NCBI GenBank assembly: GCA_024663395.1
Contig: JANFAH010000161.1
Coordinates: forward strand, 1 to 47,498
Source: Pisolithus tinctorius
Taxonomy: Eukaryota; Basidiomycota; Agaricomycetes; Boletales; Pisolithaceae
Length of the DNA stretch: 47,498 nucleotides
Direction: 5' to 3'
A program made the position numbers and the translations under genes. The notes beneath the pieces are model-generated. The model saw only the letters and a program-made list of their open reading frames with translations. It had not been told where the DNA came from and ran no database searches. Below, one piece after another: positions 2,198-27,425 of the stretch (within the stretch, counting starts at the first letter, position 1; every line of letters starts with the position of its first letter).

Positions 2198-2722
2198 TGT
2201 CAAGTACGGGATTGTCTGGGTTGAGGCCAGACCAGAGACCGAAGTGGGCACAAGACCAAGGGGTTGGGATCAGGGGGGGAGTCGAAGATACAGATAGTTG
2301 GACTGGTTGGACTTAGCAACTGAGGATACAGTGCTATTCCCTTGCATGGATCTCAGTCCAAGTCCAAGGCCGAGACAGGGTTATCAGAGTATACTTAGTT
2401 GATTTCAGACTGAGGTCTACAGGCCGAGTATCTATGAGCTTATATACTAGAAACAACTATAGTACAGAGACCAGTAATGCCAGTCTCGCAAGGATTGCTA
2501 AGGTGATTGGTAAGACAAGTATTAGTAAGGTATGACAAAGACAATGGAGACCGGGAAAGGTGGACCGGGGACAGGACCAGGCAGGACTTAGCTGAAGTGA
2601 CAGACACTGCAAAGCAGTGTCTACCATGCTAGGACATCTGGGGATAGAGGACAGGCGAGGCCGAGGCCAGACTGAGTGAGTGCGAGGCCGAGTCCAGCCG
2701 GGGTCAAGACATGGCTATGACA
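2198..2722 (-). repeat. A: 3' LTR
   Basis: 525 bp, starting TGTCAAGTAC and ending CTATGACA on the plus strand, with 5-bp inverted termini. It matches the split 5' LTR at 13592-13948 and 45877-46044. Differences are mainly C/T and G/A at CpG-derived sites. On the minus strand it holds a TATATAA box (near 2451) upstream of AGTCTGAAAT (2411-2402). Confidence 0.92.
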
Positions 2723-2726
2723 GTAT

Positions 2727-2735
2727 CCCCCTCTT
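2727..2735 (-). promoter_or_regulatory. A: polypurine tract (PPT)
   Basis: On the minus strand AAGAGGGGG lies four bases upstream of the 3' LTR, the normal place for the plus-strand DNA primer. A small inverted repeat, GGGTT-G-AACCC (2738-2748), lies immediately upstream. Elements B, C and E have a similar hairpin before the 3' LTR. Confidence 0.7.
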
Positions 2736-2843
2736 AGGGGTTGAACCCATGAGACCCCTGCGAGAGTGGTAGGCTGAGTTTTGAAAAAATGATACTTGTG
2801 GCTTGCTAAGCCTTTTGTGTCTTTCTTTCTCATCCTATTCATC

Positions 2844-3879
2844 ATGTCTGATTCGAGGCTGATCACTGTGACCGACAACAACGACAAAGGCCAGGTCATC
2901 ATTGACTGGACCCAAGTACCTGATGACAACATCAGGTATGACACTGATGATGAAGAGGAGGTGATGAAGGCGAAGGTGAAGGAGAGAAAAAGGCAAAAGG
3001 TGGCCAAGCAAGCCCAGCAGGAGGAGCAGGCTCGGCTTGAGGCTGAGAGGGTGGCAAGAGAGCAAGACAAGGCCGAGAGGATAGTGCAGGAGGCTGAGGA
3101 GCAAAGGGCTTTCGAGGAAGAAGAGAAGTGCAGAGCTGAGGAGGAGAAGGAGGCTGAGTGGAAATGTAAGGCCAAGGCCAACAAGGGTGATGAGGCCGGG
3201 GGGGAGGTGAAGAAGGTGGTTATGGACCCCAGGTGAGTGATTTTTTCTTACTACCCATGCTCTCTTCATCTAACATCCTCTAGCTGTACCCGTTGCACCC
3301 AGGTGCAGGTCGTCTGCGAGTTCCTTGTAGATGGCAACAAGAAACAGGTTGCCTGCATGCGCTGCAACTTGTCGAAAGGCAAGTGCCGATGGCTGGGGGG
3401 ACAGGAAGGACACCGAGGCCAGTCCCAAGGTCACCTCCAAGGCCAACAAAGGGAAGAAGAGGAAGGCTGATGATGGGACACCCAAGCCTGGACTGAGCCA
3501 AAAGAAGAGGGCAAAGTCGAAACCGACTGAGGTGCTGGAGATCGACAAACCTGAGGTTGGTGGGAGTGGGGTGAGGAAGGCTGGTGCAGGTGGGTTCCTG
3601 GGCTTAGAGGATAAGCTCGAGCGGCTTATCGACATCACAGGGCTCATCGCCAACAACTTGGTGGGCCTCTTCGAGGCCCATGAGGCCATGGCCGAAAACT
3701 CTGGCAGGATCACCGACATGCTTGAGGCGATGCTCGATGAGTCCTACGGCTTCGGGATGGCAGTGTCCCCTTCAGACTCAGGCTCGTCCGAGCTCAACTC
3801 TGACAAGTTGTGCAAGGAAGCAGAGTGGTTGAAGACTCATGGCAAGGATGAAGAGGAGGAGTCCAAGGGGGGAGGATGA
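2844..3879 (+). pseudogene. A: antisense accessory gene with six-Cys Zn cluster (frameshifted)
   Basis: This gene is on the strand opposite gag-pol, between pol and the 3' LTR, and convergent with pol. The start is ATG 2844 (Met-Ser-Asp), after a pyrimidine-rich leader. Exon 1 (2844-3232) codes for an acidic stretch and a long Glu/Lys/Arg/Ala-rich segment predicted to form a coiled coil. A 51-bp intron follows (3233-3283, GTGAGT...TAG). The next exon encodes Cys131, 134, 141, 154, 157 and 164, spaced C-x2-C-x6-C-x12-C-x2-C-x6-C, like a Zn2Cys6 cluster with a longer loop. After this the frame must change near a G6 run (about 3390-3400). The other frame then gives a Lys-rich linker and a helical C-terminus ending at 3879. 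Whether the shift is mutation or sequencing error cannot be seen here. A DNA-binding or regulatory role is inference. The E element has the same kind of gene. Confidence 0.7.
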
Positions 3880-4084
3880 GAGTATGGCTGAGGCCGAGTA
3901 GGATCGTAGCATAGTGCCTTTGTTGTTCCTCCTGTGAATTGTCATGTCTGGTGTCCAGTGTCCGGTCCTCTATAGTACAGTAAGAGAAGACAAGAAAGAG
4001 AAAACAAAGTAAGTAAGAGATCAAAGGAAATTTAGATACTGATAGAAAACAGAACAGAAAATTAAGGCCAGTTGAGACCGGTCC

Positions 4085-4442
4085 TTATTGGTACAGGCCG
4101 GGTTTACTGGGGTAGCAGGAATGGAATTCTTGTACAAGTTCAGATGCATTGTCCAGCTCTGTAGCTAGTACCCATGTAGTTTCTTCATCGGTCCCTTCAT
4201 AGCCGGTCCACCAGACCAAGTACTGCAGCCAACACCGGTGACGCTGGTTGACCTTGGAGTCGAGGATTTCAGCCACCTCGAACTCTAGTTCTCCATCGAC
4301 CTCAACTGGTGGGGGTGGTGGTTGAGTCTGGTTCAGGATGGTATAGGGACAGCCAGCTTGAGTTGGGAAACGTGGAAGACCAGGTGGACTGCGTGCATTG
4401 AGTCTGGCAGGCGCAGTGTGAAAGAGTGGGTACCGGCCTGAG
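4085..4442 (-). pseudogene. A: integrase C-terminus and chromodomain
   Basis: The last 63 residues give a recognisable chromodomain: aliphatic start with ILDSK, then QYLVWWTGY, then ETTWV and a Glu-rich helix. Such domains tether integration to methylated H3K9 chromatin in chromoviruses. The segment is out of frame with the preceding integrase ORF, whose last about 20 residues are already shifted, so at least one indel lies between about 4440 and 4500. The linking residues around 4300-4440 can be followed in another frame. The stop is at 4085. Confidence 0.75.
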
Positions 4443-5968
4443 CTATGACCGGATACAGCCCAAGATTCTTTTCTGAGAGTTTCTTGGAAGGCCGAGTTGA
4501 CTGGAAGTATTGGCTTTTACATATACCTGGTCACCGACCTTGAAGTCTGGAGCTGGCATGCATTTAGCATCAGCCAGGCCCTGGTAATGCTGTTGTGTGA
4601 GGGACATTTCTTCCCATAGGTATTGATGCAGTGAGTCTAAGTCAACTGCATAGTCATGAGCCCGAGCAGAGGTGAGGTTGTGCTCTGGGTACACCGAGAT
4701 GTTAGGGTGATAGCCCTTATTAGCAAAGAAGGGTGAAACACCGGTAGTAGTGCTAGGGGCATTGTTGTAAGTGAACTCAGCCAAAGGTAGTAGATCAGCC
4801 CAGTTGTCCTGCTGATAGTTGCAGTACACTCGGAGGTATTGTTCTAGAGTCTGGTTGGTCCTTTTGGTCTGGCCATCACCTTCAGGGTGGTAGCCCAAGG
4901 TGAAGTGTAAGCACATGTCCAAAGCCTTACCGAGTGACTGGAAGAAATGAGAGACAAACTCCAAGCCTTGGTCTGAGGTTACATGGGCTGGTACTCCGTG
5001 CTTTGAGAAGACATGGAGTAGGAATAATTTGGTGATTTCTGGGGCCATGATAGTGTCATGGGTGGGGATGAATATGGCCTGCTTGGAAAGCCAGTCAACT
5101 ACAATGAGGATGGCCATGAAGCCAGTTGAGGCCAGAAGTTGCTCAATGAAATCCATAGAGATGGAATTCCATGGTTTCTCTGGTACCAGGAGTTGCTTAA
5201 GGAGGCCATAAGGCCGATGGCAGGGAACCTTAGCCCAAGCACAGGCCATGCAAGACCGGACATAGTCTTTGACAAATGTCCTGAGGCCAGGCCAGGTATA
5301 CTCATGCCGTATAAGTTCCAGTGTGCAGTTTTGGCCGAAATGGCCAGACAGGGGGTGGTCATGCTTGAGCCACAAGACCCTGAGGCAGAGATCATTTGAG
5401 TCCAGCATGTAGATCCTTCCATCAAGGCAAAGGAAGCTGATGTCATCCACTGACCACCAGGGATCAGACATGTCAGAGATACAGATTTGTGAGACCAGGT
5501 CATCCGGCAGTGTGGTCAGGATGTCATTATGAAGTTTTTCTATATCCATTAGCACAACTGCCCATAAGACCAGGTACTCAAGGTAAGTGGCATGGAGGGA
5601 GACTGCTAGTTGCTCCTGGGTGAAGACCAGTCTCAGGTTCTGTGGGTTCACTCGGGCATAGCCGCTATCCCCCTCTTTGGGGTAGACATCCCATCGTCTA
5701 GTTAGGGCATTGGGCTTAGCCCCGAGCTTACTGGGTCTGAATCTGATGATCATATTGAATTGAGACAGGAATTCTGACCAGCAAGCTTGGCAGTGGGTGA
5801 GTACTTTAGAGGTAGAGAAGTACTCAAGATTCTTGTGGTCAGTAACAACGTTGACCAGTGAGGCCAAGCCCTCAAGGTAGTGGCGCCAGGTCCAGAATGC
5901 TTCGAATATAGCAAGCAATTCCTTGTCATGAGTATCATAATTCAACTCCGGGGCAGTCAAGGTCTGGG
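4443..5968 (-). pseudogene. A: pol, RNase H (3' part) and integrase
   Basis: The frame continues from the RT segment across solo LTR F1. It first completes RNase H (ELNYDTHDKELLAI type segment and TDHKNLEY). It then gives an integrase with an H-H-C-C zinc module (HPLSGHFG...MACAWAK) and the catalytic core: Asp in SMDFIEQ, Asp in TSDQG, and a third motif reading GQTKRTNQ. The third catalytic Glu is replaced by Lys (codon 4863-4865, AAA for GAA). The change lies at a CpG, so CpG deamination explains it. The ORF loses frame near 4490. Confidence 0.88.
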
Positions 5969-6640
5969 TGTCATAACCGTGCATTCGTCATAAGTCTTTG
6001 CTCACTCCACAACCTTTTCCACCGGTCATCTGCTCACTCTGCACCAACTGCTGTCAGACTTGTGTTGCTCTCCTACTGGACTGAGTGGTCCATTCTCTGA
6101 GGGGTCATGTGACTACCTTCGCAGTCAGGTACTCCACAGCACGCTCACCACATGGTCCAGCGCCTGGACTGTTTCCTTTTCTGGATGTTCTGTGTTACCC
6201 ATTTGTATGTCCTCCATCTACCCTTCATTCATCGTCCAGGAAATTTTACTTTAAAATCTATGAGTCTCCATATGTCAGTTCCGATTCCGATTACTGTACC
6301 TCCATAGCAGTATAAAAGCATGTACTGTACTCTGCTGTTCTTCAGTACGAATATCAACTTAGTTCCTACTCCCTCTGATTCCATCCTCTGTCTGTTGGAG
6401 TTACCTCCGACTCTCCATCTGTACTCTCCCTCTGAAATATGAGGGCTGAGATCGTGCAAGGGGGTAGCACACGAGCTAAACCCGATGCCCTCACTCCACT
6501 CCGCCTTTGTCTCAGTGGTCTTTGTTCCTGCCAACACTCTGCTAGTTGGAGTTCTGTTCTTCTGTGTTGGACTTGCTTCCGAACCTTTCTCTAGACCTTG
6601 TAGAGCATCGGAGTTGGTCAGAGTAGGCCCAGACTTGACA
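5969..6640 (+). mobile_element. F1: solo LTR
   Basis: 672 bp with ends TGTCATAACC...ACTTGACA and TSD CTGGG (5964-5968, 6641-6645). It is homologous to F2 at 20343-21056 but more CpG-depleted. A TATAAAAG box at 6311-6318 marks the plus strand as sense. No internal region is present, so this is a solo LTR left by LTR-LTR recombination. It splits the RNase H region of A. Removing it with one TSD restores the A frame (VAFYSQTLTAPE). Confidence 0.9.
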
Positions 6641-6645
6641 CTGGG

Positions 6646-7416
6646 AGTAGAAAGCAACCAGATGTATTTGGCCATTGCCACAGGTGATAGAGAGGATGCT
6701 GGCAATGGCATAGTCCAAAGCATCGGTCTTGACGGTGATAGGAACCCTGGGGATGAAATGAGTTAAGACCAGTGCGGTGGTGAAGGCAGCCTTGAGGTTA
6801 TTAAATGACTGGCGACACTCCTCAGAGAAGTTCCAAGGGGCACCTTTGCAGGTAAGCTGAGTCAGCGGTACAACAATGTCTGAGTAGTTGAATATAAACT
6901 GGCAGTAAAAATTGGTGAAGCTGAGGAAAGATTGAATGTCCTTGACCTTGTGAGGCTCAGGCCAGTCGCAGATGGTCTGGACCTTTTCCTTGGACATCGT
7001 GAGGCCAGCAGGGGAGAGGTGGAATCCGAGGTATTTGACTGAGTCTGAGTGAAACTCACATTTCTCTGGCTTCACATAAAGGCCATGAAGCCAAAGCTGG
7101 CAGAGTACCTCTTGGACATGCTGCTTATGAGACTCCTTATCTCCGGAGTAGATTAAGATGTCATCTAAGTAGATGACTACACAGACATCCAACATATCTG
7201 TGAAGATGGTATTCACAAAGTGTTGGAAGGTGGCCAGGGCATTGGTGAGGCCAAAGGGCATTACTAACCACTTGTAAGATCCATACCAAGTCTGGAATGC
7301 AGTTTTCCATTCATCGCCTGGGGCAATCTGGATGAGATGGTAGGCATGCCACAGATCAATCTTGGTATAGATTTTGGCTTGGCTGGGTGAGTCCAAGGGG
7401 TCAGAGATGAGTGGTA
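6646..7416 (-). pseudogene. A: pol, reverse transcriptase core and start of RNase H
   Basis: RT palm motifs are visible in order: KIDLWHAYH, VMPFGLTNA, and the catalytic YLDD at 7171-7160, then KPEKCEF and LGFHLS. The thumb/connection region and RNase H beginning (TDALDYA) follow until F1. This segment itself has no stop. It joins upstream across H1 to the RT N-terminus (QYLLP junction) and downstream across F1 to RNase H, all in frame. The RT active site is intact. Confidence 0.9.
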
Positions 7417-7420
7417 GCAG

Positions 7421-9268
7421 TGTGAGTCAAAGTGTGGAAAGCTGGTGTAAACCAAACAAATCCAACACCAAAGACAAATACGAGCGAGTGGTGGTTTACC
7501 TCCACAGAACCTGGAGGGCAGAGAAACCTGATGTGGGGGGAGGGACTTCAAGTAGAGTGCTCCTGGCACAAGTCATCGATGAGTTACACAGGAGTAGATA
7601 AGCGAGTGATGACTAGATGGGGGATGCTGAATAGAGTGAAGGTATTCAGCCGAAAGTACTCTGGTGTGATGATCTTTTGGATGTGCTCCTGGTGCAAGTC
7701 AATGACAAGTTACACAGGAGTGGATGGATGACTAAGCAGGTGTGCTGACAGAGCACAGATGATACTTCAGATGAATGAATGAAGGTAGATAGACCCTTGA
7801 TGGAGCCTCAACTACCAATGATACGAATGAAGACAGATAGACTCTTCCAAATGAGCCTCAACTGTTGACAATGAGATAGGCACTGAACTGACTGCTGGAC
7901 TGCTTCTGATTTTCTTCTTTGTAGCTAAGTACATGGGGGTTTATATACTATGGGGGGGGCACAGCTTGTGACAAACAAGGCACAAACACTTGGTAAGTAA
8001 TGAGTAAGGACTGAGTAATCATGATGAGTAAGCGAGAAATGAAAAGTAAGCAAGCAAAGAAGATTGGTAAGTATTGGCAATGAACGAGTCAAGGATAGTC
8101 AAAATATCACAGAACGAGTCAAATAGAGTCAGAAACTGAGTAAGCGCACTGATATCACATTAGGGGGTGGCAATGCAAGTCAGATCTCAGCAGAGACATC
8201 TCTAGATCCAAAGATGGCATGACAGATGGACGGTGTTTCCAGATAGGGAAGTATTAATTCCAGAATTGAAGGGCATGAGTCAGGCATCAAAGGGGGCTAG
8301 GGCGTTGGGGGTCTGTGGGGCAATGGGAGGCATATGCAATCGCATCTCCCACCCTTTCATCCTCTCAGTGAAGTTAACAAAAACTTCATGGGTGGGGCTC
8401 TGATGGAGGAGGAGGAGAAGGGGGGATGTCTTCTACTGGATCTTGCAGTAAGAAGGCAAGATGCATGTCATACTTGTCATGAATGCAATCAGGGAGGCTG
8501 GAGGACAATAGATTATACTGCAGCTGTTGCAATGTGGGAAGAATGATGGATGAGACTGGAATAAAGACAGTGCAGGGAGCAGGGAGGAACGATCCATATG
8601 CTTCATCAACCAGGGAGACTGAAACAACCACATAAGACCTTTCTAACCAAGTGACAGACCTGAGGTGACCAAAGAACGTCCTTCTGGAAGTCATACTGAC
8701 AAGGAGAACACGCTGACCAAGCTGCATGGGATGAGATGGGGCTGACAACAACGGGATGAACCAGGGGGCTTCAGGATGGAAGCTGGTGGGAACACCTGGC
8801 AGATATACATAGCCATTGTCTCTGGCAAATGAGACAAGTGAGATGATCAACGAAGAGGTGGCCATGATTGATGGACTTAGTGAAATGAGCGTCTGATGGA
8901 TGGAGTGCTGTAGAAACATGTAGGGTGCGAGGATCCTCTCCAAATTTGGAAGGAAGAATCGTGGGGCTGAGCACTTTAAGTGAGTGTGGGAACGGAGTCG
9001 ATATCTTTGGAAATGGTGGAGATATGATGAAAACCGGAATGCCATACATGGGCGCTAAAAACCTTTAACGTGCGCTTAACTCACTTCCTCTTTTCTCTTT
9101 AGCACTGACAAATCATTCTTGTGCAAAGGATGACTGTTCACGTCCAACAGTCTTTCTACACATGAGGCCTTTAGTCTTCATCTGCATGCTTGGGCATTGT
9201 GCGCAACTCATCAACGAGTTAGGCAGAGTCAGCTGTAACCATGTCCACAACACCTTTGGTGTGTGACA
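7421..9268 (-). mobile_element. H1: solo LTR of a long-LTR family (about 1.85 kb)
   Basis: Ends are TGTGAG...GTGACA on the plus strand, with a 4-bp TSD GCAG (7417-7420, 9269-9272). I read it as a solo LTR with sense on the minus strand. U3 begins at 9268, an ORF lies at 8865-8386, a TATATAA box lies at 7947-7941, and R/U5 contains repeated TTGAGGCTC...AGTCTATCT segments near 7800-7880. About 120 bp at 7555-7740 contains two related CTCCTGG...GTTACACAGGAGT units. No internal element sequence is present. A DNA-transposon reading is less likely because TG...CA ends and a 4-bp TSD fit LTRs. Confidence 0.75.
8386..8865 (-). CDS. Conserved ORF in the U3 region of LTR H1 (unknown function)
   Basis: From ATG 8865 the ORF gives 159 aa. 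In H1 it is open further upstream to another ATG at 9045 (219 aa in all). H2 has ACG instead of that upstream ATG, so I prefer 8865, which all copies share. The protein is hydrophobic to neutral, has segments GYVYLPG, PEAPWFIP, MTSRRTFFG and SLVDEAYGS, and ends in a Pro-rich tail. I recognise no family. The ORF sits upstream of the TATA box in the same orientation, so if expressed it needs its own upstream start of transcription. Confidence 0.5.
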   Translation of the reverse strand: MATSSLIISLVSFARDNGYVYLPGVPTSFHPEAPWFIPLLSAPSHPMQLGQRVLLVSMTSRRTFFGHLRSVTWLERSYVVVSVSLVDEAYGSFLPAPCTVFIPVSSIILPTLQQLQYNLLSSSLPDCIHDKYDMHLAFLLQDPVEDIPPSPPPPSEPHP

Positions 9269-10246
9269 GCAGGTATTGGTCTTTCTTAGTGATCTTGTTC
9301 AGGCTGCAGAAGTCTATGCAAAGCCGGAGGGAGCCATCCTTCTTTTTGACAAAGAGGACTGGTGCAGCATAAGGGGAGGAGGTAGGCCAAATGAATCCAG
9401 TGGTAAGGTTTTCATTGATGAAAGTCCAGAGAGCTTGGAGCTCAACTGGGGACAGCAAGTAGATGGTGCTGAGAGGCGGGGTTGTTCCTTCTTCAAGCTC
9501 TATTTTCAGGTCATACTCCCAGTGTGGTGGGAGTGCCGAGGCCTTGGCCTTGCTGAATACATCAGCAAAGTCATGGTACTCTTCTGGAACATTGGGTAAG
9601 GCCAGAGGAGGTGAAGCTGAGGCTGATTGGGCTTGAGCTGAATCCGAGGGGCAGAGCTGAAGTTGGAACTGGACAGACCCTTCTAGTTTTCAGGTGCACA
9701 CAAAAGCAGCTGCATTGATTAGGGAAACCAGAGGGGCCTTCAGAGGGGTGTGAGCCGGAGAGTCGGAGACTGGTACAGATGGCACAAGGCCGGGTTGGTC
9801 ACTAGGACCAGAGTCAGGGAGGCCAGTGGAAACTGGGCTTACAAGGGGTGTCGATGGGGTTGGCATTCCTTGTGCAGGAGTCTGGAATGTTAGACTGCCC
9901 AATACCCAATCAATCAATGGATTGTAGTTGGTGAGCCAGTCATGTCCGAGAACTATCTTACACTCAGAATCCAATGGGGGTAGATACAGGGTTACTGGGG
10001 TGACATTGCTGGATGCGAAGCAGATATTGACATCTACTGCTTGGGTTATGGTGAAGGTGGACGTTCCATTGAAGAGCTGGAGTCGGATTGGTGAGACCAA
10101 GTAAGGGGTAAAAGAGTGTTGATTAGCAAATTGGTTATCTATGAAACAATGCATGGAACCAGAGTCCACTAAAGTACGAAGCCAAGGTAATTCATGGTTT
10201 TCTAATGTGACATAGGGGGTTAAAGAATTCAGACTGGAAAGAGTGG
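9269..10246 (-). pseudogene. A: pol, protease and N-terminal RT
   Basis: Starts just after H2. The retropepsin active site is D-S-G followed by Ser-Met-His, and the second conserved region is IVLGHDWL. A Pro/Ser-rich linker follows, then a TGA stop at 9690-9692 where CGA would keep the frame. RT then begins with LSPVELQAL, SPYAAPVLFVKKKDGSLR and IDFCSLNKIT, ending at the H1 junction. The frame before and after the stop is the same, so one CpG transition accounts for the break. Confidence 0.85.
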
Positions 10247-10250
10247 ACAC

Positions 10251-12107
10251 TGTGAGTCAAAGTGTGGAAAGGTGGTGAAAACCAACCAAAACCAACACAA
10301 AAGACAAATGTAAAGCGAGTGGTGGTGTGCCTCCACAGAACCTGGAGTGCAGAAACCCAAGAGGGGGAAACTTCAATGGGAGGGTGCTCCTAGCACAGGT
10401 CGTCGACAACTTATGCAAGAGCAGATGGTTGAATGATGACTGGATGGGGGCTGCTGAACAGAGTGAAGGTGTTCAGCCGAAAGGACTTGGGATGAAGGAC
10501 TTTGATAAGATGTGCTCCTGGTGCAAGTCGATGATGAGTTATGCAGGAGTGAATGGATGACTAAGCAAGAGTGCTGACTAAGTGTGGATAAGACTGCAGA
10601 TGATGGATGGTGGCAGATAGACTCCTTCATGGAGCCTCAACTACCAATGATATGAATGGAGACAGATAGACTCTTCTGAATGAGCCTCAACTGTCAACAA
10701 CAAGTTATGCACTGAAGAACTGACTGACTGCTGAGTGAATGGCTTCTGATTTTCTTGTTGGTAGCTAAGTACATGGGGGTTTATATACTGTGGGGGGGGC
10801 ACAGCTTGTGACAAACAAGGCACAAACACTTGGTAAGTAATGAGTAAGGACTGAGTAATCATGATGAGTAAGCGAGAAATGAAAAGTAAGCAAGCAAAGA
10901 AGATTGGTAAGTATTGGCAATAAACGAGTCAAGGATAGTCAAAATATCACAAAATGAGTCAAATAGAATCAGAAACTGAGTAAGTGCACTGATATCACAT
11001 TAGGGGGTGGTGATGCAAGTTAGATCTTGGCAGAGACATCTCTAGATCCAAAGATGGCATGACAGATGGATGGTGTTTCCAGATAGGGAAGTATTAATTC
11101 CAGAATTGAAGGGCATGAGTCAGGCATCAAAGGGGGCTAGGGCGTTGGGGGTCTGTGGGGCAATGAGAGCATACGCAATCGCATCTCCCACCCTTCCATC
11201 CTCTCAGCGAAGTTAACAAAAACTTCATGGGTGGGGCTCTGATGGAGGAGGAGGAGAAGGGGGGACGTCTTCTGCTGGATCTTGCAGTAAGAAGGCAAGA
11301 TGCATGTCATACTTGTCATGAATGTGATCAGGGAGGCTGGAGGACAGTAGATTATACTGCAGCTGTTGCAATGTGGGAAGAATGATGGATGAGACTGGAA
11401 TAAAGATGGTGCAGGGAGCAGGAAGGAACGATCCATATGCTTCATCAACCAGGGAGACTGAAATGACCACATAAGACCTTTCTAACTGAGTGACAGACCT
11501 GAGGCGACCAAAGAACGTCCTTCTGGAAGTCATACTGACAAGGAGAACACACTGACCAAGCTGCATGGGATGAGATGGGGCTGACAACAATGGGATGAAC
11601 CAGGGGGCTTCAGGACAGAAGCTGGTGGGAACACCTGGCAGATATACATAGCCACTGTCTCTGGCAAATGAGACAAGCGAGACGACCGATGAAGAGGTGG
11701 CCATGATTGATGGACTTAGTGAAATGAGTGTCTGATGGATGGAGTGCCGTAGAAACACACAGGGTGCAAGGATCCTCTCCAAATTTGGAAGGAAGAATCG
11801 TGGGGCTGAGCACTTTAAGCGAGTGTGGGAATGGAGTCGATATCTTTGGAAATGGTGGAGATACGATGAAAACCGGAATGCCGTACATGGGTGCTAAAAA
11901 CCTTTAATGTGCGCTTAACTCGCTTCCTCTTTTCTCTTTAGCACTGACGACTCGTTCTTGTGTGAAGGATGACTGTTAATGTCCAACAGTCTTTCTACGC
12001 ATGAGGCCTTTAGTCTTCATCTGCATGCTTGGGCATTGTGCACAACTCATCAATGAGTTAGGCAGAGTCAGCTGTATCCATGTCCACAACACCTTTGGTG
12101 TGTGACA
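10251..12107 (-). mobile_element. H2: solo LTR of the long-LTR family H
   Basis: 1857 bp, the same structure and orientation as H1, with 4-bp TSD ACAC (10247-10250, 12108-12111). It matches H1 end to end with mainly CpG-type transitions. The TATATAA box is at 10787-10781. It separates the end of A gag from A protease. Confidence 0.78.
11225..11704 (-). CDS. Conserved ORF in the U3 region of LTR H2 (unknown function)
   Basis: ATG 11704 to the stop at 11225 gives 159 aa, the same length as in H1. It differs by scattered substitutions (for example the residues around SSVVSLV and GRLRSVTQ) but has no stop or indel. The frame is also open further upstream without an equivalent ATG. No domain is recognised. 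Preservation of length among diverged copies is the main evidence that it is or was a real gene. Confidence 0.5.
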   Translation of the reverse strand: MATSSSVVSLVSFARDSGYVYLPGVPTSFCPEAPWFIPLLSAPSHPMQLGQCVLLVSMTSRRTFFGRLRSVTQLERSYVVISVSLVDEAYGSFLPAPCTIFIPVSSIILPTLQQLQYNLLSSSLPDHIHDKYDMHLAFLLQDPAEDVPPSPPPPSEPHP

Positions 12108-12188
12108 ACACATTGAGATGAGCCTCCAAGTTTGCACAACCAGAGTCAACACAGCTCCCAGATTGTGCGGAGTCCTGGGAGCTGCTAC

Positions 12189-13553
12189 CTATTTTTTTGT
12201 CTCAGGGGTAGAACCCAAGCCTGAGGCCGGTGCGGCCTTGGTGGTGGCCACAGTGCAAGCCTTGGCCTTTGCGGCTTTCTTGGGGCATTTGTCAGTGAAG
12301 TGACTGGACCCTCCACAGAACATGCAGAGGTTTCCGTCTATGCAATGCTTGCATTCTTCAGGGGTAAGCTTTCCATCCTTGCTGAGTTTGCTAGGCTCAG
12401 GCTTGGACGAATTGCTGTTATTACTATTGCCCAGCTTCAATGAAGCCAGCTTGGGAGAAGATCTGGAGTTGTTGTTGTTGCCAGTCTTGGATTTGTCTTG
12501 GCCAGTCTTGGGCTGACTATTGTTGCTGGAGCCACCAGACTTGTTGTTACCAGAGTTGGACGAGCCCTGGTGCTTATTTGCCCTTTGGACTTCTTCCTTG
12601 TGCTCCCAATAGCACACATCTATTTCTTGGGCGAGGTGGTGGAGCTCGTGAAGTGTCCAGGGTTTGCCAACTCGACAGACTTCATCCTTAATCCAGTCTG
12701 GGAGCCTGGAATAGAAATGATAGCACAGTGCACCATCTCCATAGCCTCGGACTTGTGAAGCAAGCCGATTAAAGTCTACTATGTACTTGTTAATGCGCTG
12801 ACTTTCCTTCATATGTAAATGGTCGAGTTGGCTCTCAGTGTCAGCAACCGGATCATGGGGGCCGAAGGTGGTTTGTAGCTCCAGGATGAACTCCCACCAG
12901 GAGTCCATCCAGAGAGGCCAGTCATCAGGGTTGTCGAGCCTGAGCAAGTCCAGTTCGAACCACTCTAAGGCCATGCCTTTGAGGTAAGATTGGACAAAGA
13001 TGACCTTGGCATGGTTGGTCCTAAAAGCCTGGGGACAGTCTTGGAAGTTAAGTTCGCACTGGATGAAGAAGGCATGAAGTTTCTTTGGGTCGATGCCATT
13101 GAAAGTGTTGGGCTCACACAGCTTGGTCCTGCTTGAGGACTCAGGGCTAGTGTGGGCATTACCAGCCAACAGTTTGATGGCTGAAGCAAGGTTGTCTAAG
13201 ACTGTAATGGTGGGCTCGGTGTCTGGATCTGGGAAGTCTGGATCGTCCTCCAGATCATTATCTTCCAGATTATCATCACTGGGACCATCATCGTCTGGGT
13301 TGTTGTCATCATCGTCACCCAGCCCATCATTGCTGGGGTCACCCTTGGGGATGGGAGCAGTGGGACAATGTGGGGTGGGGGTATTAGATGTGTGGGCTGA
13401 AAAGCCCCTGAAGGGACTAATGGGATCTGGAGAGCACCTAGTGGTTCCCAAAGCAGCTAGTGCTGTTTTGTGGCGAGCCCCACTGGCTGAGGCCAAGTCA
13501 GGATTGGTGGCAGGGCAGCCACGGGGAGGTTGGAAGCGAGTCTTTGTTGCCAT
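12189..13553 (-). CDS. gag: A: gag polyprotein (454 aa, intact)
   Basis: The start is ATG 13553, 38 bases inside the PBS-proximal LTR boundary, and the stop is TAG 12191-12189. The N-terminus is Pro/Ala-rich, followed by an Asp-rich acidic stretch. A retrotransposon-gag (capsid) region follows (around FNGIDPKKLHAFFIQ, SYLKGMALEWF, FGPHDPVADTE), then an Asn/Ser/Lys-rich linker and a CCHC zinc knuckle C-x2-C-x4-H-x4-C (CMFCGGSSHFTDKC). This is the nucleocapsid and capsid precursor. The ORF ends directly after an A7 run that could be a frameshift site into pol. Confidence 0.9.
   Translation of the reverse strand: MATKTRFQPPRGCPATNPDLASASGARHKTALAALGTTRCSPDPISPFRGFSAHTSNTPTPHCPTAPIPKGDPSNDGLGDDDDNNPDDDGPSDDNLEDNDLEDDPDFPDPDTEPTITVLDNLASAIKLLAGNAHTSPESSSRTKLCEPNTFNGIDPKKLHAFFIQCELNFQDCPQAFRTNHAKVIFVQSYLKGMALEWFELDLLRLDNPDDWPLWMDSWWEFILELQTTFGPHDPVADTESQLDHLHMKESQRINKYIVDFNRLASQVRGYGDGALCYHFYSRLPDWIKDEVCRVGKPWTLHELHHLAQEIDVCYWEHKEEVQRANKHQGSSNSGNNKSGGSSNNSQPKTGQDKSKTGNNNNSRSSPKLASLKLGNSNNSNSSKPEPSKLSKDGKLTPEECKHCIDGNLCMFCGGSSHFTDKCPKKAAKAKACTVATTKAAPASGLGSTPETKK
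12192..12198 (-). promoter_or_regulatory. A: candidate -1 ribosomal frameshift heptamer at the gag/pol junction
   Basis: On the minus strand the gag codons run ACA-AAA-AAA-TAG, so the A7 run forms A-AAA-AAA in the phase required for -1 slippage. A slip puts ribosomes into the frame that continues, across H2, into the protease. The alternative is loss of one A from an A8 run in a formerly continuous gag-pol frame. Confidence 0.5.
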
Positions 13554-13579
13554 GATGATTTAGACCCACACAAGTGGCG

Positions 13580-13589
13580 AGTCTGAAAT
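13580..13589 (-). promoter_or_regulatory. A: primer-binding site of self-priming (Tf1/sushi) type
   Basis: Two bases inside the 5' LTR the minus strand reads ATTTCAGACT. This is the exact 10-nt complement of AGTCTGAAAT within the LTR (13805-13796), which lies about 28 nt after a TATATAA box, where transcripts would start. No tRNA-like TGG start is present. This fits priming by the folded-back 5' end of the element RNA, known from Tf1 and sushi-type chromoviruses. Confidence 0.65.
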
Positions 13590-13591
13590 AC

Positions 13592-13948
13592 TGTCAAGTA
13601 TGGGATTGTCTGGGTTGAGGCTGGACTGGAGACCAAAGCAGGCGTGAGACCGAGGGGTCAGGATCAGGGGGGGAGTCAAAGATACAGATAGTTGGACTGG
13701 TTGGACTTAGCGACTGAGGATACAGCACTATTCCCTTGTGTGGATCTCAGTCCGAGTCCAAGGCTGAGATGGGGTTTTCAGAGTATACTTAGTTGATTTC
13801 AGACTGAGGTCTACAGGCCGAGTATCTATGAGCTTATATACTAGAAACAACTATAGTACAGAGACCAGTAATGCCAGTCTCGCAAGGATTGCTAAGGTGA
13901 TTGGTAAGACAAGTATTAGTAAGGTATGACAAAGACAACAGAGACCGG
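13592..13948 (-). repeat. A: 5' LTR, first piece (interrupted by element B)
   Basis: Matches 2198-2555 of the 3' LTR. It stops at CCGG (13945-13948), the left target duplication of B, and continues at 45877. Candidate core promoter on the minus strand: TATATAA at 13840-13834. Confidence 0.9.
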
Positions 13949-14300
13949 TGTAGGGAATGTAATTTCCCTACTGGGGGAATTGTTTTATTTTGATGATTTT
14001 GCTTTATTTTTGTTCTAGCTATCCCTCTGCTACTTGTTCTTAGAATTTCGCATTTTTGTTGCTTAGTCAGCACTACCTAGTACTGGATGTAGTTAGTTGT
14101 TTTTTTTTAAAAAATAGACAAGTTACCCTAAGACGAGAGACGAGTTTGAGCAGGTCATTTCCCTGCACCCAGACAGCCTTAGAAGCCTTCAGACGATTAT
14201 CAGGATCCTTGCCCAGGCTATAGAAGCCCCTTTGGCCTACTCACTCCCCTCAGACAATCCAACTACCAGTCTTCTCCCCACTAATTCTTGTTTTCCTACA
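13949..14300 (+). repeat. B: 5' LTR
   Basis: 352 bp. It matches the right LTR closely for the first about 290 bp, with differences mainly at CpG. The last about 55 bp (U5 end) differ strongly from the other LTR until the common TTTTCCTACA terminus. Confidence 0.9.
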
Positions 14301-14302
14301 AC

Positions 14303-14319
14303 TGGAGCCCACCGCGAGG
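14303..14319 (+). promoter_or_regulatory. B: tRNA-type primer-binding site
   Basis: TGGAGCCCACCGCGAGG begins two bases (AC) after the LTR. Element E has the same site with the same AC spacer (TGGAGCCCACTGCGAGG, minus strand 26767-26751). The primer tRNA was not identified. Confidence 0.75.
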
Positions 14320-14528
14320 GGCTTCTGTCTTAGCCTGGCAACCCTCCCCAACCCTTCCCAGATTTTATTTTGCAGTCTCTAGCTTCGTTTTCGCAATTTT
14401 CAGGCTCGGTTTAGCAGATTTTGCCTTTTCGGTCTCATTTTTGCAGTCACTTCACTCGCAATTTCGTGTTTTCCCACTTGCGCACACTCACATATCAAGC
14501 ACTCGCACTCGTATTACCCACTATCTTC

Positions 14529-14638
14529 ATGCTTGGCCTCAAGATTCTGTGTCGAGGCTCGCCCGAAGCACCGAGCTTCTCTGGGTGCCCCGAGGACCTT
14601 CAAAGCTATTTTGATGACATAATCGACTTCTGTGATGG
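14529..14638 (+). CDS. gag: B: gag, segment 1 of 3
   Basis: The first ATG (14529) after the leader starts a gag protein interrupted here by element C after codon position 2 of a Gly codon. Residues include CPEDLQSYFDDI, which resembles the start of the capsid domain in E gag (LPRYLEDIDFLG). The segment joins exactly to 35124 when element C and one GATGG copy are removed. Confidence 0.8.
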
Positions 14639-14923
14639 TGTAAGGATTCGGTCCGATGCTGTCGACTGTATGGTTAGATGTTGTTTTCCTTATGACAGAT
14701 CTATTGGTTTCTCATTTATTTGTTTGATCCTACTTAACCCGTACTGATACTCTGACATATTTCGTGCCTAACCTCTACCCTATAAAATAGGCCTTGTAGC
14801 ATACTGTACAGGGACTTCTTTTCTACCTCGAAATAAGACACTATTGTCTGGAAACCCGAGTAGACGAAGAATCCTTCTTGTTGTGCCGCTGTTAAAAGTT
14901 CTGCACTTCTTATCGGTGTTACA
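14639..14923 (+). repeat. C: 5' LTR
   Basis: 285 bp with TATAAAATAG at 14781-14790 as the likely core promoter. It differs from the right LTR at 12 positions, all transitions and all inside eight former CpG sites. The sequence after it (TATTTTTTTTCCTGC) does not look like a tRNA-type PBS. Confidence 0.92.
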
Positions 14924-15054
14924 TATTTTTTTTCCTGCAAAACAAGGTCTTACCTCAAACCCAATAACAAACACACCAGATACCTTCTCGACCATTCGCA
15001 GAACTGATCCACTGCGAAGACAAGAGTAAGTATCATACACTTGATAAAAAAGAA

Positions 15055-16634
15055 ATGGTTAATACCCATGCAACTGCCCACCGAGCTACAAAAGCTCGGG
15101 CATCGTCATTACCTCCTAGCCCGTCGATGACTCAGCCTGGTGCTGACATCGGCGATAAGTCTTCACTCCCAAAACTGACTCCAATAGGAAGTCAATATTC
15201 CACCCCAATTGAAAGGCCCATCACTGATAACATCTGGAGTTATAGTGACATGGTAAGGACTGGCTCGCGGGACCCAAGCCCGGCGCCCAAAGGAGCTGCT
15301 GCTACCCTCCCTGGCTCGAGAGTAAGCTCGCCAATAGACCCTGGCTCGAGAGCGAGCTTGCCAAATTACCTTGGCTTGAGAGTTACCTCGCCAGAGAATC
15401 CTGGCTCGAGGATAGCCTCGCCGATGAATCCTGGTGACATTGAAGTCCCGGAAGCTGTAAAGGCTCGTGCTGTTAGAGTCTGGGTACTGACTCACGAAGA
15501 AAACGAGAACCTACCCGATAAGGTCCAGTGCGACTCCATCTTCCCTATGAGCAAAATAGATGTTGAGTATGGTGACTGGACGGAAGTGAAGTGCAAGAGG
15601 TCGCGCGAGCGACGCGCTCATAGCATGCTGAGATCTGATCAAAGAGATGCAATCCAAAAAGCCGAAAGACAACTAACCCCAGATGAGCAGGAGAGAATCT
15701 GAAGGAGGTCGCTATCGACAACGAGGGATAACCCCGATCCTACTACATCCGAAGACAAAGCGTCCACTACCCAGAGAGATCTCAAAGGGAAAGGACCTGA
15801 TCCTAGAAATTGGGGAAACTTAAATTTCAGTGACGGTGAAATAGATACAAATGCGCAACGCACGGCCCTCGTGTCATGGAACACCTTGAACAAACTGGCG
15901 AGTAAGAGTGACCCCAACCTGATGGGACCAGCAGAAAGGGGTAACCTGGAGGATGCCACATCGGCCAACAAAGATGTCCCCCAGAAGAAGGCCAGTGGGG
16001 GCGACGATCGTGCTGAACGGCTCCCTAAGAAAGAGAAATCAAAGAGAAGGGAAAACACAAAGAAACCTGCTCCTTCGAAGGTTCCTCCCAATCCTGTAAA
16101 GGAGATGGTGGATAAAGTTGTCTGCCAGGACCATAAGAGGTGGGAACACCAAAAGATGCCAAGGGCCATGGAACCTGTAAAACAGATAAACCCTAAGAGC
16201 TATATTGGGCTTGCCTTTAAATGTCTCGAAAAGGACGAAAAACACACTAGTAAAACCAAAAGGAAACGGAAATCAACGCATCGACGTGAATCGACAGATA
16301 ATAGCAAGTCCAGCTCTAGCTCGAGCGATGGCTCCGAGAGTAGCTCCCTGGAGGATGACTCGAGTTCAGATCCGTCCACCTCTTTGAGTTCGAAATGCAG
16401 TACCTCAAGTGATGATGGATCAGCTTCGGAATCGGATGATATGTCGAGCACCTCTGGCAGCTCATCGAGCTCCAGTGAATCCTCATCGAGCTCCAGCAGG
16501 TCACGAGGGCATTGGCGACGGGGAAGATCCAAGCAGCGGAAAAGCCATAGTCGCCGAGCACATAAGTCAAAAAGGAGATCTAGACCCCGCCGGAAGACCA
16601 CTTTGAAACCCATCCCACCTAACAAGTATGACGG
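15055..16634 (+). pseudogene. gag: C: gag, N-terminal part (one in-frame stop)
   Basis: ATG 15055. The N-terminal region is Ser/Pro-rich with four 10-residue repeats. It is followed by a TGA stop at 15700-15702 where CGA would fit. The frame then stays open to the E insertion at 16634, through a Lys-rich region, a long Ser/Asp/Glu tract and an Arg/Ser/Lys-rich basic stretch ending PPNKYDG. That ending is the usual beginning of a gag capsid domain and joins in frame to 27430. Confidence 0.82.
15310..15429 (+). repeat. C: four tandem 30-bp coding repeats in gag
   Basis: Four units of 30 bp (15310, 15340, 15370, 15400), each coding for a PGSR-x-x-SP-x-x type decapeptide, followed by a partial PG. 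Differences between units are mostly transitions. Confidence 0.85.
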
Positions 16635-17290
16635 TGTAGGAAAAGCCCAAGTAGCTGTATAACATGAGCTAGATGGCTTAGATAACAACAATAAAAAATG
16701 AAGGGAACGAATTGTTCGTCCCAAGGGATTCTGGACTGTCGGGACTAGAAGGAGAGACCCAGCGCTTTGTAGTGGTAGTGTTTCGTGACGTGCGCGGCGT
16801 GGTCCACGGAGTAGTACTGGCAATGCGAGCGGTGCGAGCAGTATACGTAGTTCGTGCACGGCAGAATGCGAGATGTGTGGTGTAGACAAAGTGGAAAAGA
16901 AACTCGTGGTGACCTTCCAAGTGCCAAAAGGTATCATTCTGTACCTAAGTACAGGGCTTTTATAGTCCAGGCAAACCCGGAACCTAAGTAAGACAGGGTA
17001 CAGTAAGGGAAGGCCGCGTGACAGTGCGTACTCAGAAGACAGGCCAAAACAGAGGCCGAGGGTATACTACAAGCACTAAAAGAATAGAGACTGTGATAAA
17101 AAAAAGAGTCCGAGGAAAAACAACAACCGGAGCACAGCGGCTGCGGGTATAGCATTGCGCGAGAAGGAGCGAGGGCATGGGAAGGTAGCGCGTGAACAAT
17201 GGCGAACGTGAGAGGGGAGCAGTTGTAACAGTAGTCATGGAACGGTTAATGATAGGGGCTTACATGTCCAGGGAATGCGGATTCCTCACA
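16635..17290 (-). repeat. E: 3' LTR
   Basis: 656 bp. In sense orientation it carries TATAAAAG (16964-16957). It lies next to the hairpin/PPT-like block 17291-17328. Confidence 0.92.
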
Positions 17291-17328
17291 CCTGCGGGGG
17301 ACTTAGATGCTGACCGTTCCCGGTCAGC
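17291..17328 (-). repeat. E: hairpin plus CCCCCGC block at the 3' LTR (copy 2)
   Basis: In sense orientation: a hairpin GCTGACC-GGGAAC-GGTCAGC type palindrome (17328-17309), then a short spacer, then AGTCCCCCGCAGG directly before the 3' LTR. A second copy lies at 19415-19453, on the other side of the accessory gene. A related hairpin precedes the 3' LTR of B. Confidence 0.7.
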
Positions 17329-17504
17329 CACGTGGCACGGAGGACATGAATAGCTTGCCGCGTGGTGATGGCAACGGTGTGGTGCCAAGGGTTTGAGAAT
17401 ACCGGAGAGTTCCGCGTAGAAGCAAAGGAAGCATAGAGCCGAGGGACGTGAGAAGGCCATTGAATACTGTGTATAGGCATCCAGACCGATGACATAAGCG
17501 CCTC

Positions 17505-17600
17505 ATGGCCGCTATGTATATAATTGTTAGTGCGCAGCTCAAACCTTCGCATCGATTTGATTCTTTCCTCCCATCATCGACCCCTTCTATTGCTCTCATC
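17505..17600 (+). promoter_or_regulatory. Promoter and leader of the E accessory gene
   Basis: TATGTATATAATTG at about 17513-17526 is a TATA-like element. It is followed by a pyrimidine-rich leader ending CTCTCATC before ATG 17601. This is typical of fungal class II promoters and independent of the sense LTR promoter. Confidence 0.5.
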
Positions 17601-18714
17601 ATGTCTGCTGGCCGTGCCCCTCATCTCTCCCAGCTCGTATGCACAGCCACCCCCGACCCGATCGAAGCAGAGAAGACCTTGCTGAGGGAGAAGTTTGTTG
17701 CCGCCTCCGCAGCTCTGGTCGCTGAGGCCAAGTGCCTCCTGGATGACAAGGAGGAATTGTGGGAGGAGAAAGTGATGTGGATGCGCAGATGGGAGCAGAG
17801 GACAGTAAGTGTCCAACGCCTTTGAGGCTCACAGTACTGATTGTTTTCCAGGGAGAAGTGTTCCCCCTTGTCGAGTGCGGGCGAGCGTTGGGAATCGACA
17901 CCAAAATAGACGCGGCGGATGGTCCCACGGTAGCGGAGGCTGACGAGGCCTATGAGAGGTGGGTGTCCAAGGAGATCGCACGGGGGAGAGCTGACGAGGA
18001 CATGCAGATGGAAGAGGCGGTCGCGCAGGCTGTCGTCGAGCAGGGTACCAGTGCCGAGGTGCCGGTGACAACAGAGAAAATGTCGCACATCGAAGTGGTG
18101 TCCCATCCAGTTCGGAAGGTAAGTGCGGAATCTGGACGGTGCGGTAGCAGCTAACACTGAAGTCCTAAGCGATCGCGGCAAATGGTGGCAGAGAGCGAAG
18201 ACGAGGACGAGCCCAAGATCGTCATTCCTCCCAGCTCGATCCTCCACAAGGTCCCGTGTGCACGGTGCACGGTGAAGAAGACGGCCTGTATCGGACCCAT
18301 TGGGCGGACGTGTGACGGCTGTGCGCGAATGAAGCAGGGGTGCAAGAAGTCGACGAAGGCCGCAGGAAAGAAGGCACAGGCAGGCGCTTCGGTCGGTAAG
18401 TAATGACCCCACTTTGGGAGGTGCGAAGTTAACGGCGAGCAGCGCGGGCCTCGAAGACCGCGAAGGCGAGCTCGTCCAAGAGAGTCGTAGACAACGATGA
18501 CGATGACGACGAAGTAGAGGTGGTCGAAAGCCACATGCATGCGAAGGGAAAAGCACCAGTGCGTAGCCGGCTCGATGCCAAGGTCGCGGCCGACCTGTCG
18601 CAGTCGCTGAGGCTGCTTCGTGCTGAGGCCGCGGAGTCGCAGGCCGCATACCTTCGCCTGCAGGTGCACGTCGATCAACTCGCCGAAGCTCTGGAGAAGA
18701 TTGGGGTGGAATAA
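17601..18714 (+). CDS. E: antisense accessory gene, Zn2Cys6-like cluster protein (4 exons, 322 aa)
   Basis: The exons are 17601-17804, 17852-18118, 18170-18395 and 18443-18714. The introns are 47, 51 and 47 bp, each with a GTAAGT donor and AG acceptor, and CTAAC/TTAAC-like branch sites in the second and third. The spliced frame is 969 nt without a stop until TAA 18712-18714. Exon 1 gives a charged helix, exon 2 an acidic region. Exon 3 gives an acidic lead and six cysteines at residues 187, 190, 197, 205, 208 and 215 (C-x2-C-x6-C-x7-C-x2-C-x6-C), the spacing of a fungal binuclear zinc cluster. Exon 4 gives a basic nuclear-signal-like segment, an Asp/Glu run and a C-terminal leucine-containing coiled coil. 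It lies opposite to and convergent with pol. A DNA-binding regulator is the likely type; the target is unknown. The gene is intact although pol is broken. Confidence 0.85.
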
Positions 18715-26769: not shown

Positions 26770-27425
26770 TGTAGGAAAAGCCCAAGTAGCTGTATAACAC
26801 GAGCTAGATGGCTTAGATAACAACAATAAAAAATGAAGGGAACGAATTGTTCGTCCCAAGGGATTCTGGACTGTTGGGACTAGAAGGAGAGACCCAGTGC
26901 TTTGTAGCGGTAGTGTTTTGTGACGTGCGCGGCGTGGTCCGCGGAGTAGTACTGGCAATGCGAGCGGTGCGAGCGGTATACGTAGTTCGTGCATGGCAGA
27001 ATGCGAGATGTGCGGTGTAGACAAAGTGGAAAAGAAACTCGTGGTGACCTTCCGAGTGCCAAAAGGTATCATTCTGTACCTAAGTACAGGGCTTTTATAG
27101 TCCGGGCAAACCCGGAACCTAAGTAAGACAGGGTACAGTAAGGGAAGGCCGCGCGACAGCACGTACTCAGAAGACAGGCCAAAACAGAGGCCGAGGGTAT
27201 ACTACAAGCACTAAAAGAATAGAGACCGTGATAAAAAAAAGAGTCTGAGGAAAAACAACAACCAGAGCACAGCGGCCGCAGGTATAGCATTGCGCGAGAA
27301 GGAGCGAGGGCGTGGGAAGGTAGCGCATGAACAATGGCGAACGCGAGAGGGGAGCGGTCGTAACAGTAGTCACGGAATGGTTAATGATAGGGGCTTACGC
27401 ATCCAGGGAATGCGGATTCCTCACA
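26770..27425 (-). repeat. E: 5' LTR
   Basis: 656 bp, the sense promoter TATAAAAG at 27099-27092. It is followed on the right by TSD ACGG and continuing C gag. Confidence 0.92.

What the first reader, a model, noticed from the sequence alone, without database searches (positions are those of the whole stretch)
2844..18714. Two gypsy families carry an antisense, intron-containing Zn-cluster gene at the same position
Seen: A (2844-3879) and E (17601-18714) both have a gene between pol and the 3' LTR, on the strand opposite pol and convergent with it. Both start ATG-TCT after a pyrimidine-rich leader, both have introns of about 50 bp, and both encode six cysteines with C-x2-C-x6-C-x(12 or 7)-C-x2-C-x6-C spacing between charged and helical regions. 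Known: that spacing is typical of fungal Zn2Cys6 DNA-binding domains. The gag-pol parts of A and E are of different lineages (self-priming with chromodomain; tRNA-primed without), so the gene was either acquired twice or exchanged. Introns require it to be expressed from its own antisense transcript, since a sense genomic RNA would not splice them out, which explains their survival through retrotransposition. Inference: an element-encoded regulator, perhaps controlling LTR transcription, silencing or copy number.
Basis: partly seen in the sequence, partly recalled or inferred. Interest (0 to 1): 0.9.

Follow-up and report, generated by a model that had tools for sequence, protein, structure and literature searches.

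The report
Antisense zinc-cluster gene in retrotransposons
Two families of jumping genes in the mushroom Pisolithus each carry, on the strand opposite their replication genes, an extra gene with predicted introns and six conserved cysteines that natural selection has kept working, and its protein is predicted to bind DNA and likely controls the element itself.

Summary
Gypsy elements A and E each carry, between pol and the 3' LTR and convergent with pol, an antisense gene with a C-x2-C-x6-C-x(12 or 7)-C-x2-C-x6-C cluster and predicted introns of 47-51 bp. The host is Pisolithus tinctorius or a very close relative. The gene belongs to the element: it sits beside the LTR in 21 of 21 A loci and 19 of 20 E loci read, and 12 of 15 loci picked by pol have it, the other three being filled by other repeats. 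Elements with 98.7-100% identical LTR pairs keep it open (7 of 7). It is under purifying selection (median dN/dS 0.14 and 0.19). The window's A copy is frame-broken; its allele-like copy is open. Unexpectedly, the gene is the most diverged part of the element (in A, transversions twice the LTR's and 4-6 times those of pol and adjoining DNA). A DNA-binding regulatory role is inferred: Pfam Zn_clus stays below cutoff, structure models are weak, no expression data were available. Antisense genes in this place are known in plant elements and in fungal Boty (brtn); a zinc-cluster one was not found in the papers searched.

The parts
2198..2722 (-). 3' LTR of gypsy element A (sense strand is -); target-site duplicate TCTGG at 2193-2197 and 46045-46049
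   Evidence: repeat of 13592-13948 plus 45872-46044
2723..2843 (+). gap between LTR and antisense gene A: PPT side and pyrimidine-rich leader; fewest transversions of the A segments compared
   Evidence: alignment of 18 copies
2844..3232 (+). antisense gene A exon 1: acidic, charged, long predicted helix
3233..3283 (+). predicted intron of gene A (51 bp)
3284..3879 (+). antisense gene A exon 2; six-Cys cluster 3285-3386, basic stretch, second helix; frame broken in this copy after the cluster
4085..4516 (-). end of A pol: chromodomain
   Evidence: Pfam PF00385 1.8e-9
4443..5987 (-). A pol: RNase H and integrase
6542..7426 (-). A pol: reverse transcriptase
   Evidence: Pfam RVT_1 9.4e-30
12189..13559 (-). 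A gag
   Evidence: Pfam Retrotrans_gag 5.7e-8
13592..13948 (-). 5' LTR of A, first part; rest at 45872-46044, split by a nested insertion that contains E
16635..17290 (-). 3' LTR of gypsy element E
   Evidence: repeat of 26770-27425 (97% over the 300 nt compared; ends)
17291..17600 (+). gap between LTR and gene E with TATATA 84 nt before the ATG on the gene strand
   Evidence: TATATA 82-85 nt before the start in 19 of 20 copies
17307..17328 (.). inverted repeat GCTGACCG-N4-CGGTCAGC (17309-17328) next to the PPT; second version at 19434-19455
17601..17804 (+). antisense gene E exon 1
17805..17851 (+). gene E predicted intron 1 (47 bp)
17852..18118 (+). antisense gene E exon 2
18119..18169 (+). 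gene E predicted intron 2 (51 bp)
18170..18395 (+). antisense gene E exon 3 with the six-Cys cluster at 18257-18343
18396..18442 (+). gene E predicted intron 3 (47 bp)
18443..18714 (+). antisense gene E exon 4: acidic run and C-terminal helix
19594..20358 (-). C-terminal part of E pol, convergent with gene E
   Evidence: 92-95% protein matches downstream of the gene in copies L011-L016
20958..23345 (-). E pol: RT, RNase H, integrase zinc domain
26770..27425 (-). 5' LTR of E

Best explanation
In two Ty3/gypsy families of Pisolithus the antisense six-cysteine gene with predicted introns between pol and the 3' LTR is a standing part of the element kept by purifying selection, and its protein is predicted to be a nuclear DNA-binding regulator that would act on the element's own LTR region. 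Proposed working, step by step. (1) Seen in sequence: the gene lies antisense beside the 3' LTR and is carried by recently inserted copies with its introns in place, as expected if the sense genomic RNA is copied, in which the introns read backwards. (2) Inferred: after insertion an antisense promoter just inside the 3' LTR (a TATA box about 84 nt before the ATG in E; the LTR or the short leader in A) makes a separate mRNA that is spliced. (3) Inferred: the protein is held together by helices (a long N-terminal helix in A, a C-terminal helix in both), enters the nucleus by the basic stretch after the cluster, and binds DNA through a Zn2Cys6-like cluster. (4) Inferred, least certain: its target is the element's own LTR/PPT border, so each lineage sets its own sense transcription and copy number, which would also explain why the gene and the sequence just past its stop codon are far more diverse than the rest of the element.
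For: Element gene: 41 A matches (40 of 325 candidates scored) and 40 E matches (40 of 212 scored) in the same genome. Of 21 A loci read (among the best gene matches, window and its allele included), 21 have the A LTR directly before the gene (one partial) and 20 have the chromodomain end of pol on the other strand after it, three of them farther off; E: LTR edge in 19 of 20, E pol behind the gene in all 8 loci long enough to tell. Picked by pol end instead: of 40 places, 15 lie beside a gene place; of the other 25 I probed 15: gene on the expected strand in 12, other repeats inserted in 3; 10 not probed. Recent movement: of 11 complete A elements, all 7 with LTR pairs 98.7-100% identical have the gene open, 1 of 4 with 93.7-95.2%. 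Selection: NG86 median dN/dS 0.142 (13 A copies, 78 pairs) and 0.192 (12 E copies, 63 of 66 pairs); the other five frames 0.27-1.90 in A and 0.31-1.49 in E, the low one in each being the same reverse frame, which shares third positions; omega = 1 rejected: lnL -6505 against -6899 in A, -4694 against -4849 in E. Introns: bodies differ at 0.38 of sites in A and 0.20-0.30 in E, third codon positions at 0.30 and 0.31, first and second at 0.09-0.11, while the ends stay GTRAGT...AG with one exception in 8 + 8 copies. Cysteines: all six in 70 of 73 A and 57 of 59 E database proteins that have the region, among the 76 and 74 aligned. Helices with block pLDDT of 90 or more: A 51-110, E 281-320. TATATA before the E start in 19 of 20.
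Against: No transcript, protein, zinc or DNA-binding data. Pfam Zn_clus: best E 0.043, in 4 of 22 A members, none of 22 E members, always below cutoff. The cluster is predicted at pLDDT about 50, and Foldseek gave no PDB match for A and a best E-value of 0.8 for E. No target site is known; the E inverted repeat is only a candidate. In A the only TATA-like motif found within 700 nt before the start is a TATATA about 400-420 nt away inside the LTR. The gene evolves faster than integrase in the same 7 copies (dN/dS 0.136 against 0.028, 21 pairs), so it is less constrained than a core enzyme. E has no proven tRNA primer.
Confidence: 0.5

Rival explanations
1. The protein is an anti-silencing factor: it binds the element and keeps or makes it free of CpG methylation, rather than tuning LTR transcription as such.
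For: Some open copies show strong CpG loss (observed/expected 0.38-0.53 in six of the 25 copies used, about 1.0-1.2 in most others), as expected if the host methylates the element. DNA transposons of some Basidiomycota and Pezizomycetes carry TET/JBP dioxygenases, which the author says likely contribute to escape from methylation-based silencing (PMC12730594, abstract read).
Against: No demethylase-like domain was matched in Pfam; no methylation data; the CpG argument fits any methylated element.
Confidence: 0.22
2. The protein is a non-transcriptional accessory of the life cycle: it accompanies the cDNA or integrase, for nuclear entry or target-site choice.
For: Basic stretch after the cluster, long helices; the plant review (PMC7264820, section 7) proposes such roles for antisense extra ORFs.
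Against: A factor packaged with gag-pol would more simply be made from the sense RNA; a separate spliced antisense mRNA suits a factor made independently. No chromatin-targeting domain was matched in it.
Confidence: 0.18
3. The antisense RNA, not the protein, is what matters: it pairs with genomic RNA and tunes silencing.
For: Antisense transcripts of elements may feed small-RNA silencing (discussed in PMC7264820, passages read).
Against: dN/dS of 0.14 and 0.19, frame-specific, conserved cysteines and drifting introns need a protein.
Confidence: 0.04
4. Host genes or fragments caught by chance.
For: They are filed in databases as host hypothetical proteins.
Against: Same place beside the LTR in nearly every copy read, picked by gene or by pol.
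Confidence: 0.01

Closest known systems
Antisense additional ORFs between pol and 3' LTR (aORF-3R) of plant Ty3/gypsy elements: maize Grande gene23, rice RIRE2, Retand (TRP28), PvRetro13
   Same: Same place, same strand relation, present in most copies, some of the proteins nuclear; those of Retand predicted to bind DNA (PMC7264820 sections 5 and 7 and passages; PMC11963269 passages).
   Different: The proteins named there are unrelated (TRP28, Smc and others); the word intron does not occur in the main text of either paper. Here: six-Cys cluster, one or three predicted introns, a fungus.
brtn, the antisense gene of Boty-like gypsy elements of Botrytis cinerea and Sclerotinia (Zhao et al. 2011, Virology 417:248; not held, known from citing papers)
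   Same: Fungal gypsy element with a chromodomain and an extra antisense gene.
HTLV-1 HBZ and other retroviral antisense proteins (PMC10186651 passages)
   Same: Antisense gene at the 3' LTR, spliced, nuclear regulator of the provirus.
   Different: HBZ is a bZIP protein; none was matched here. Its 3' LTR promoter is established, here it is inferred.
Fungal Zn2Cys6 (zinc cluster) transcription factors, PF00172
   Same: Cysteine number and spacing (consensus recalled); a number of database copies bear the automatic name Zn(2)-C6 fungal-type domain-containing protein.
   Different: Below Pfam's cutoff; the lysine four residues after a half-cluster's second Cys, which I recall as typical of the first half of the known domain, is conserved in the second half of A and is the consensus in the second half of E.

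Membership tests
[quoted passage not shown]
Antisense additional ORF between pol and 3' LTR (aORF-3R) | present in most copies of the family | tested here: met
   A only: 15 of 40 pol ends adjacent to a listed gene; 12 of 15 further probes, 3 filled by other repeats; 10 of 40 not probed. Not tested from the pol side for E
[quoted passage not shown]
   constrained, but dN/dS 0.136 against 0.028 for integrase and far more divergent DNA. A description in the review rather than a defining trait; position and strand define the class
Zn2Cys6 binuclear cluster (PF00172) | C-x2-C-x6-C-x(5-12)-C-x2-C-x(6-8)-C | tested here: met
   x12 in A, x7 in E; consensus recalled
Zn2Cys6 binuclear cluster (PF00172) | score above the Pfam gathering cutoff | tested here: not met
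   best E 0.043; matched at E 0.1 or less by 4 of 22 A and 0 of 22 E members
Zn2Cys6 binuclear cluster (PF00172) | fold of two metal-bridged helix-loop halves | tested here: inconclusive
   cluster at pLDDT about 50; no usable PDB match
Zn2Cys6 binuclear cluster (PF00172) | binds zinc and CGG-type DNA sites | not testable with these tools
   needs protein
HBZ-like retroviral antisense regulators | bZIP domain | tested here: not met
   no bZIP match in Pfam scans
HBZ-like retroviral antisense regulators | antisense spliced mRNA started in the 3' LTR | tested here: inconclusive
   conserved predicted introns and an E TATA box between LTR and gene; no RNA data
Boty brtn | sequence homology | not tested
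   sequence and paper not held

The most novel reading that the evidence does not exclude
The antisense gene is a lineage-specificity cassette: many diverged versions of a self-directed DNA-binding regulator are kept in circulation on an otherwise far more uniform, freely recombining gypsy backbone, in two element families separately, much as a self/non-self locus is kept diverse by selection.
Probability: 0.25. Interest if true: 0.85.

Novelty: new variant of a known kind. Interest (0 to 1): 0.62.

Why it matters
Antisense extra genes of LTR elements have been known for years without a function. Here is one with a transcription-factor-like cluster, introns that show which strand must make the mRNA, young intact copies, and strong codon evidence, in a mushroom. 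It would make the question of whether retrotransposons encode their own transcription regulators directly testable. It also suggests that the 109 E-type hits and at least the 120 listed of 183 A-type hits in databases (all listed names are Pisolithus), filed as host hypothetical proteins, are a retrotransposon gene, which inflates host gene and transcription-factor counts.

Tried and rejected
Host fragment and chance explanations: rejected on position, copy number and dN/dS. Antisense RNA alone: rejected on codon evidence. Structure route: two AlphaFold2 jobs gave mean pLDDT 63 and 58; PDB fold search gave nothing usable; profile search of solved structures gave no match below E 0.12. Relatives outside Pisolithus: none among the 109 E hits and none among the 120 of 183 A hits that are listed (the A search scored only the candidates sharing most words, and 63 hits were not listed); a third search limited to longer proteins found 2, both Pisolithus. 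tRNA primer of E: no genome match. Exchange of the gene between A sublineages: trees of gene and pol reject each other, but so do LTR, integrase and RT trees among themselves (10 copies), so recombination is general and not special to the gene. The 12-copy trees held an outlying pol slice (L017, branch length 2.1) and are superseded. Rfam gave no match in the window. Literature: the listings (titles and starts of abstracts) showed no paper with a zinc-cluster antisense gene in a gypsy element; subscription papers are not held.

Rows dropped: the A selection set used 13 of 14 open copies of 22 (L029 dropped as twin of L028; partial L025 left out of the 22). E used 12 of 20: left out were L010 (identical to the window), L012, L038, L041, L045 (best model with other introns) and L016, L037, L046 (no full-length open model). 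Pairs with dS of 0.03 or less were left out. Divergence profile: A 7 copies (L033 dropped as twin of L030), E 17 of 20 (L010, L014, L043 dropped). The A splice models preferred the cluster pattern when several were open; the database alignments do not depend on that choice, but hold 76 of 120 and 74 of 109 listed proteins, picked by me.
Full report
What is there. The window is a stack of nested transposons from Pisolithus: the spliced E protein differs at one of 322 residues from GenBank M404DRAFT_30327 of P. tinctorius Marx 270, and the A gene on contig C71 gives exactly M404DRAFT_30333; both records sit on a database contig of the same length, 366,823 bases. C71 holds A and E at the same spacing as the window and is most likely the other allele or haplotype (inferred). 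Element A (LTR 2198-2722, other LTR split, target duplicate TCTGG) is the outer one; E lies inside an insertion that split A's 5' LTR.

The genes. A: one 51-bp predicted intron, cluster at the start of exon 2. E: predicted introns of 47, 51 and 47 bp, cluster in exon 3. Of 22 A copies, 14 are open with the same intron (47-62 bp) and all six Cys; of 20 E copies, 13 are open with the same three introns. The window's own A copy is frame-broken after the cluster.

They belong to the elements. All 21 A loci that I read have the LTR against the gene (one match is partial); 20 have the pol end convergent behind it; 19 of 20 E loci have the LTR edge about 311 bp before the start. These loci were picked by the gene. 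Starting from pol gives the same answer for A: 12 of 15 probes hold the gene on the expected strand, and the remaining three are filled by other repeats; 15 further pol ends lie beside a gene already listed, and 10 of the 40 were not probed. Complete A elements are about 7.5 kb, with target duplicates (for example GGGCC around L034, whose LTRs are identical), so elements with the gene moved recently.

Selection. Pairwise dN/dS medians are 0.142 (A) and 0.192 (E) at median dS of 0.78 and 0.65; codon models give omega 0.15-0.19 and 0.24-0.26 and reject omega = 1 by 393 and 155 log units. Reading the same alignments in the other frames gives 0.95-1.9, except one reverse frame, which shares third positions (0.27, 0.31) and also holds stops. 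Intron bodies differ at 0.38 (A) and 0.20-0.30 (E) of sites against about 0.10 at first and second codon positions, with splice ends kept but for one (8 + 8 copies). These features need a spliced, translated mRNA from the antisense strand; the RNA itself was not seen. The gene is less constrained than integrase in the same 7 copies (dN/dS 0.136 against 0.028).

An unexpected pattern. Within A, the gene and the 300 bp after its stop are the most diverged part of the segments compared: transversions per site, median of 21 pairs, are 0.025 in the LTR, 0.008 in the gap, 0.053 in the gene, 0.064 in the next 300 bp, 0.010 in the 400 bp after that and 0.0125 in pol. In E (136 pairs) they are 0.012 in the LTR edge, 0.019 in the gap, 0.056 in the gene and 0.029 behind it; the gene exceeds the gap in 118 of 136 pairs and the following stretch in 115. 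Counting transversions alone makes CpG decay an unlikely cause. Because introns and, in A, the trailer share the excess, relaxed protein constraint cannot explain it. Either the cassette is older than the backbone it rides on, kept diverse while the rest is made uniform by recombination, of which there is much along the element, or it mutates faster. I cannot separate these here.

What the protein may do. Both proteins join a Zn2Cys6-like cluster, a basic stretch and helices: residues 37-116 and 243-292 in A, 278-318 in E. That make-up, and a promoter-like TATATA 82-85 nt before the E start in 19 of 20 copies, fit a DNA-binding regulator made from its own antisense mRNA, in the manner of HTLV-1 HBZ. 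Pfam's Zn_clus model stays below its cutoff, so I call it Zn2Cys6-like and do not file it in the family. In E an inverted repeat of eight-base arms lies between LTR and gene (19 of 20 copies, many with one or two C-to-T or G-to-A changes), and a second version with matched changes in both arms lies beyond the gene (7 copies seen, 6 exact and one with a change at the outermost base); it could be a binding site for a dimer or an RNA hairpin by the PPT.

A against E. Different pol types; the clusters align as profiles, weakly. Common descent, double capture and exchange all stay possible.

What is known. Antisense extra ORFs in this place are an established class in plants and are known in the fungal Boty element as brtn (PMC7264820, sections 5 and 7 and passages; PMC8365987 and PMC4227169, passages; Zhao 2011 itself not read). 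The passages seen name no zinc-cluster protein, and the main texts of PMC7264820 and PMC11963269 do not contain the word intron. Hence a new variant of a known kind.

Noticed in passing
window 17286-17328 and 19410-19455: A 22-bp direct repeat of the PPT side (91% alike, TCAC-CCTGCGGGGGACTT) plus an inverted repeat brackets the E gene at both ends; the two inverted repeats differ by matched changes in both arms (CCG..CGG against CTG..CAG). It may mark how the gene was taken in.
   Followed up: partly
window about 2736-2750, sense strand of A next to the 3' LTR: In copies that keep the CpG, the sense strand reads GGTTCGACCCC, a match to the recalled RNA polymerase III B box, conserved beside the PPT in the 18 copies aligned apart from changes at that CpG; ARAGORN found no tRNA in five loci.
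   Followed up: partly
window 7418-9245 and 10248-12110: Two copies of a roughly 1.8-kb repeat inserted in A, each with a minus-strand ORF of 222 codons (8386-9054, 11225-11893); the same repeat fills two of the three pol-end probes without the gene, and by eye database protein P0109 carries a version of this ORF.
   Followed up: partly
window 33436-34788: Sense-strand ORF of 450 codons between pol and the 3' LTR of the element that hosts E (LTR repeats 14639-14926 and 34834-35121): possibly an extra gene on the sense strand.
   Followed up: no
window 1644-2197 and 46519-47071: Element A sits inside a foldback repeat with arms 97-99% complementary and ends like CAGTGAGGGACAAAAGTGTTGCAA.
   Followed up: no
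window 37592-38501 and 39132-40041: 910-bp arms, 100% complementary, holding 103-nt repeats spaced 132-135 nt, inside what looks like a copia element.
   Followed up: no
A and E copies: CpG observed/expected ranges from about 1.2 down to 0.38 between copies: a sign of methylation-driven decay in this fungus.
   Followed up: partly
10 A copies among L018-L035, segments: LTR, gene halves, integrase and RT segments of A reject each other's trees (p-AU below 0.05 throughout, except the 5' gene half against the whole-gene tree): heavy recombination within the family.
   Followed up: yes
window 2844-3879 against C71:37125-38158: The window's A copy is frame-broken while the allele-like copy on C71 is open.
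   Followed up: yes
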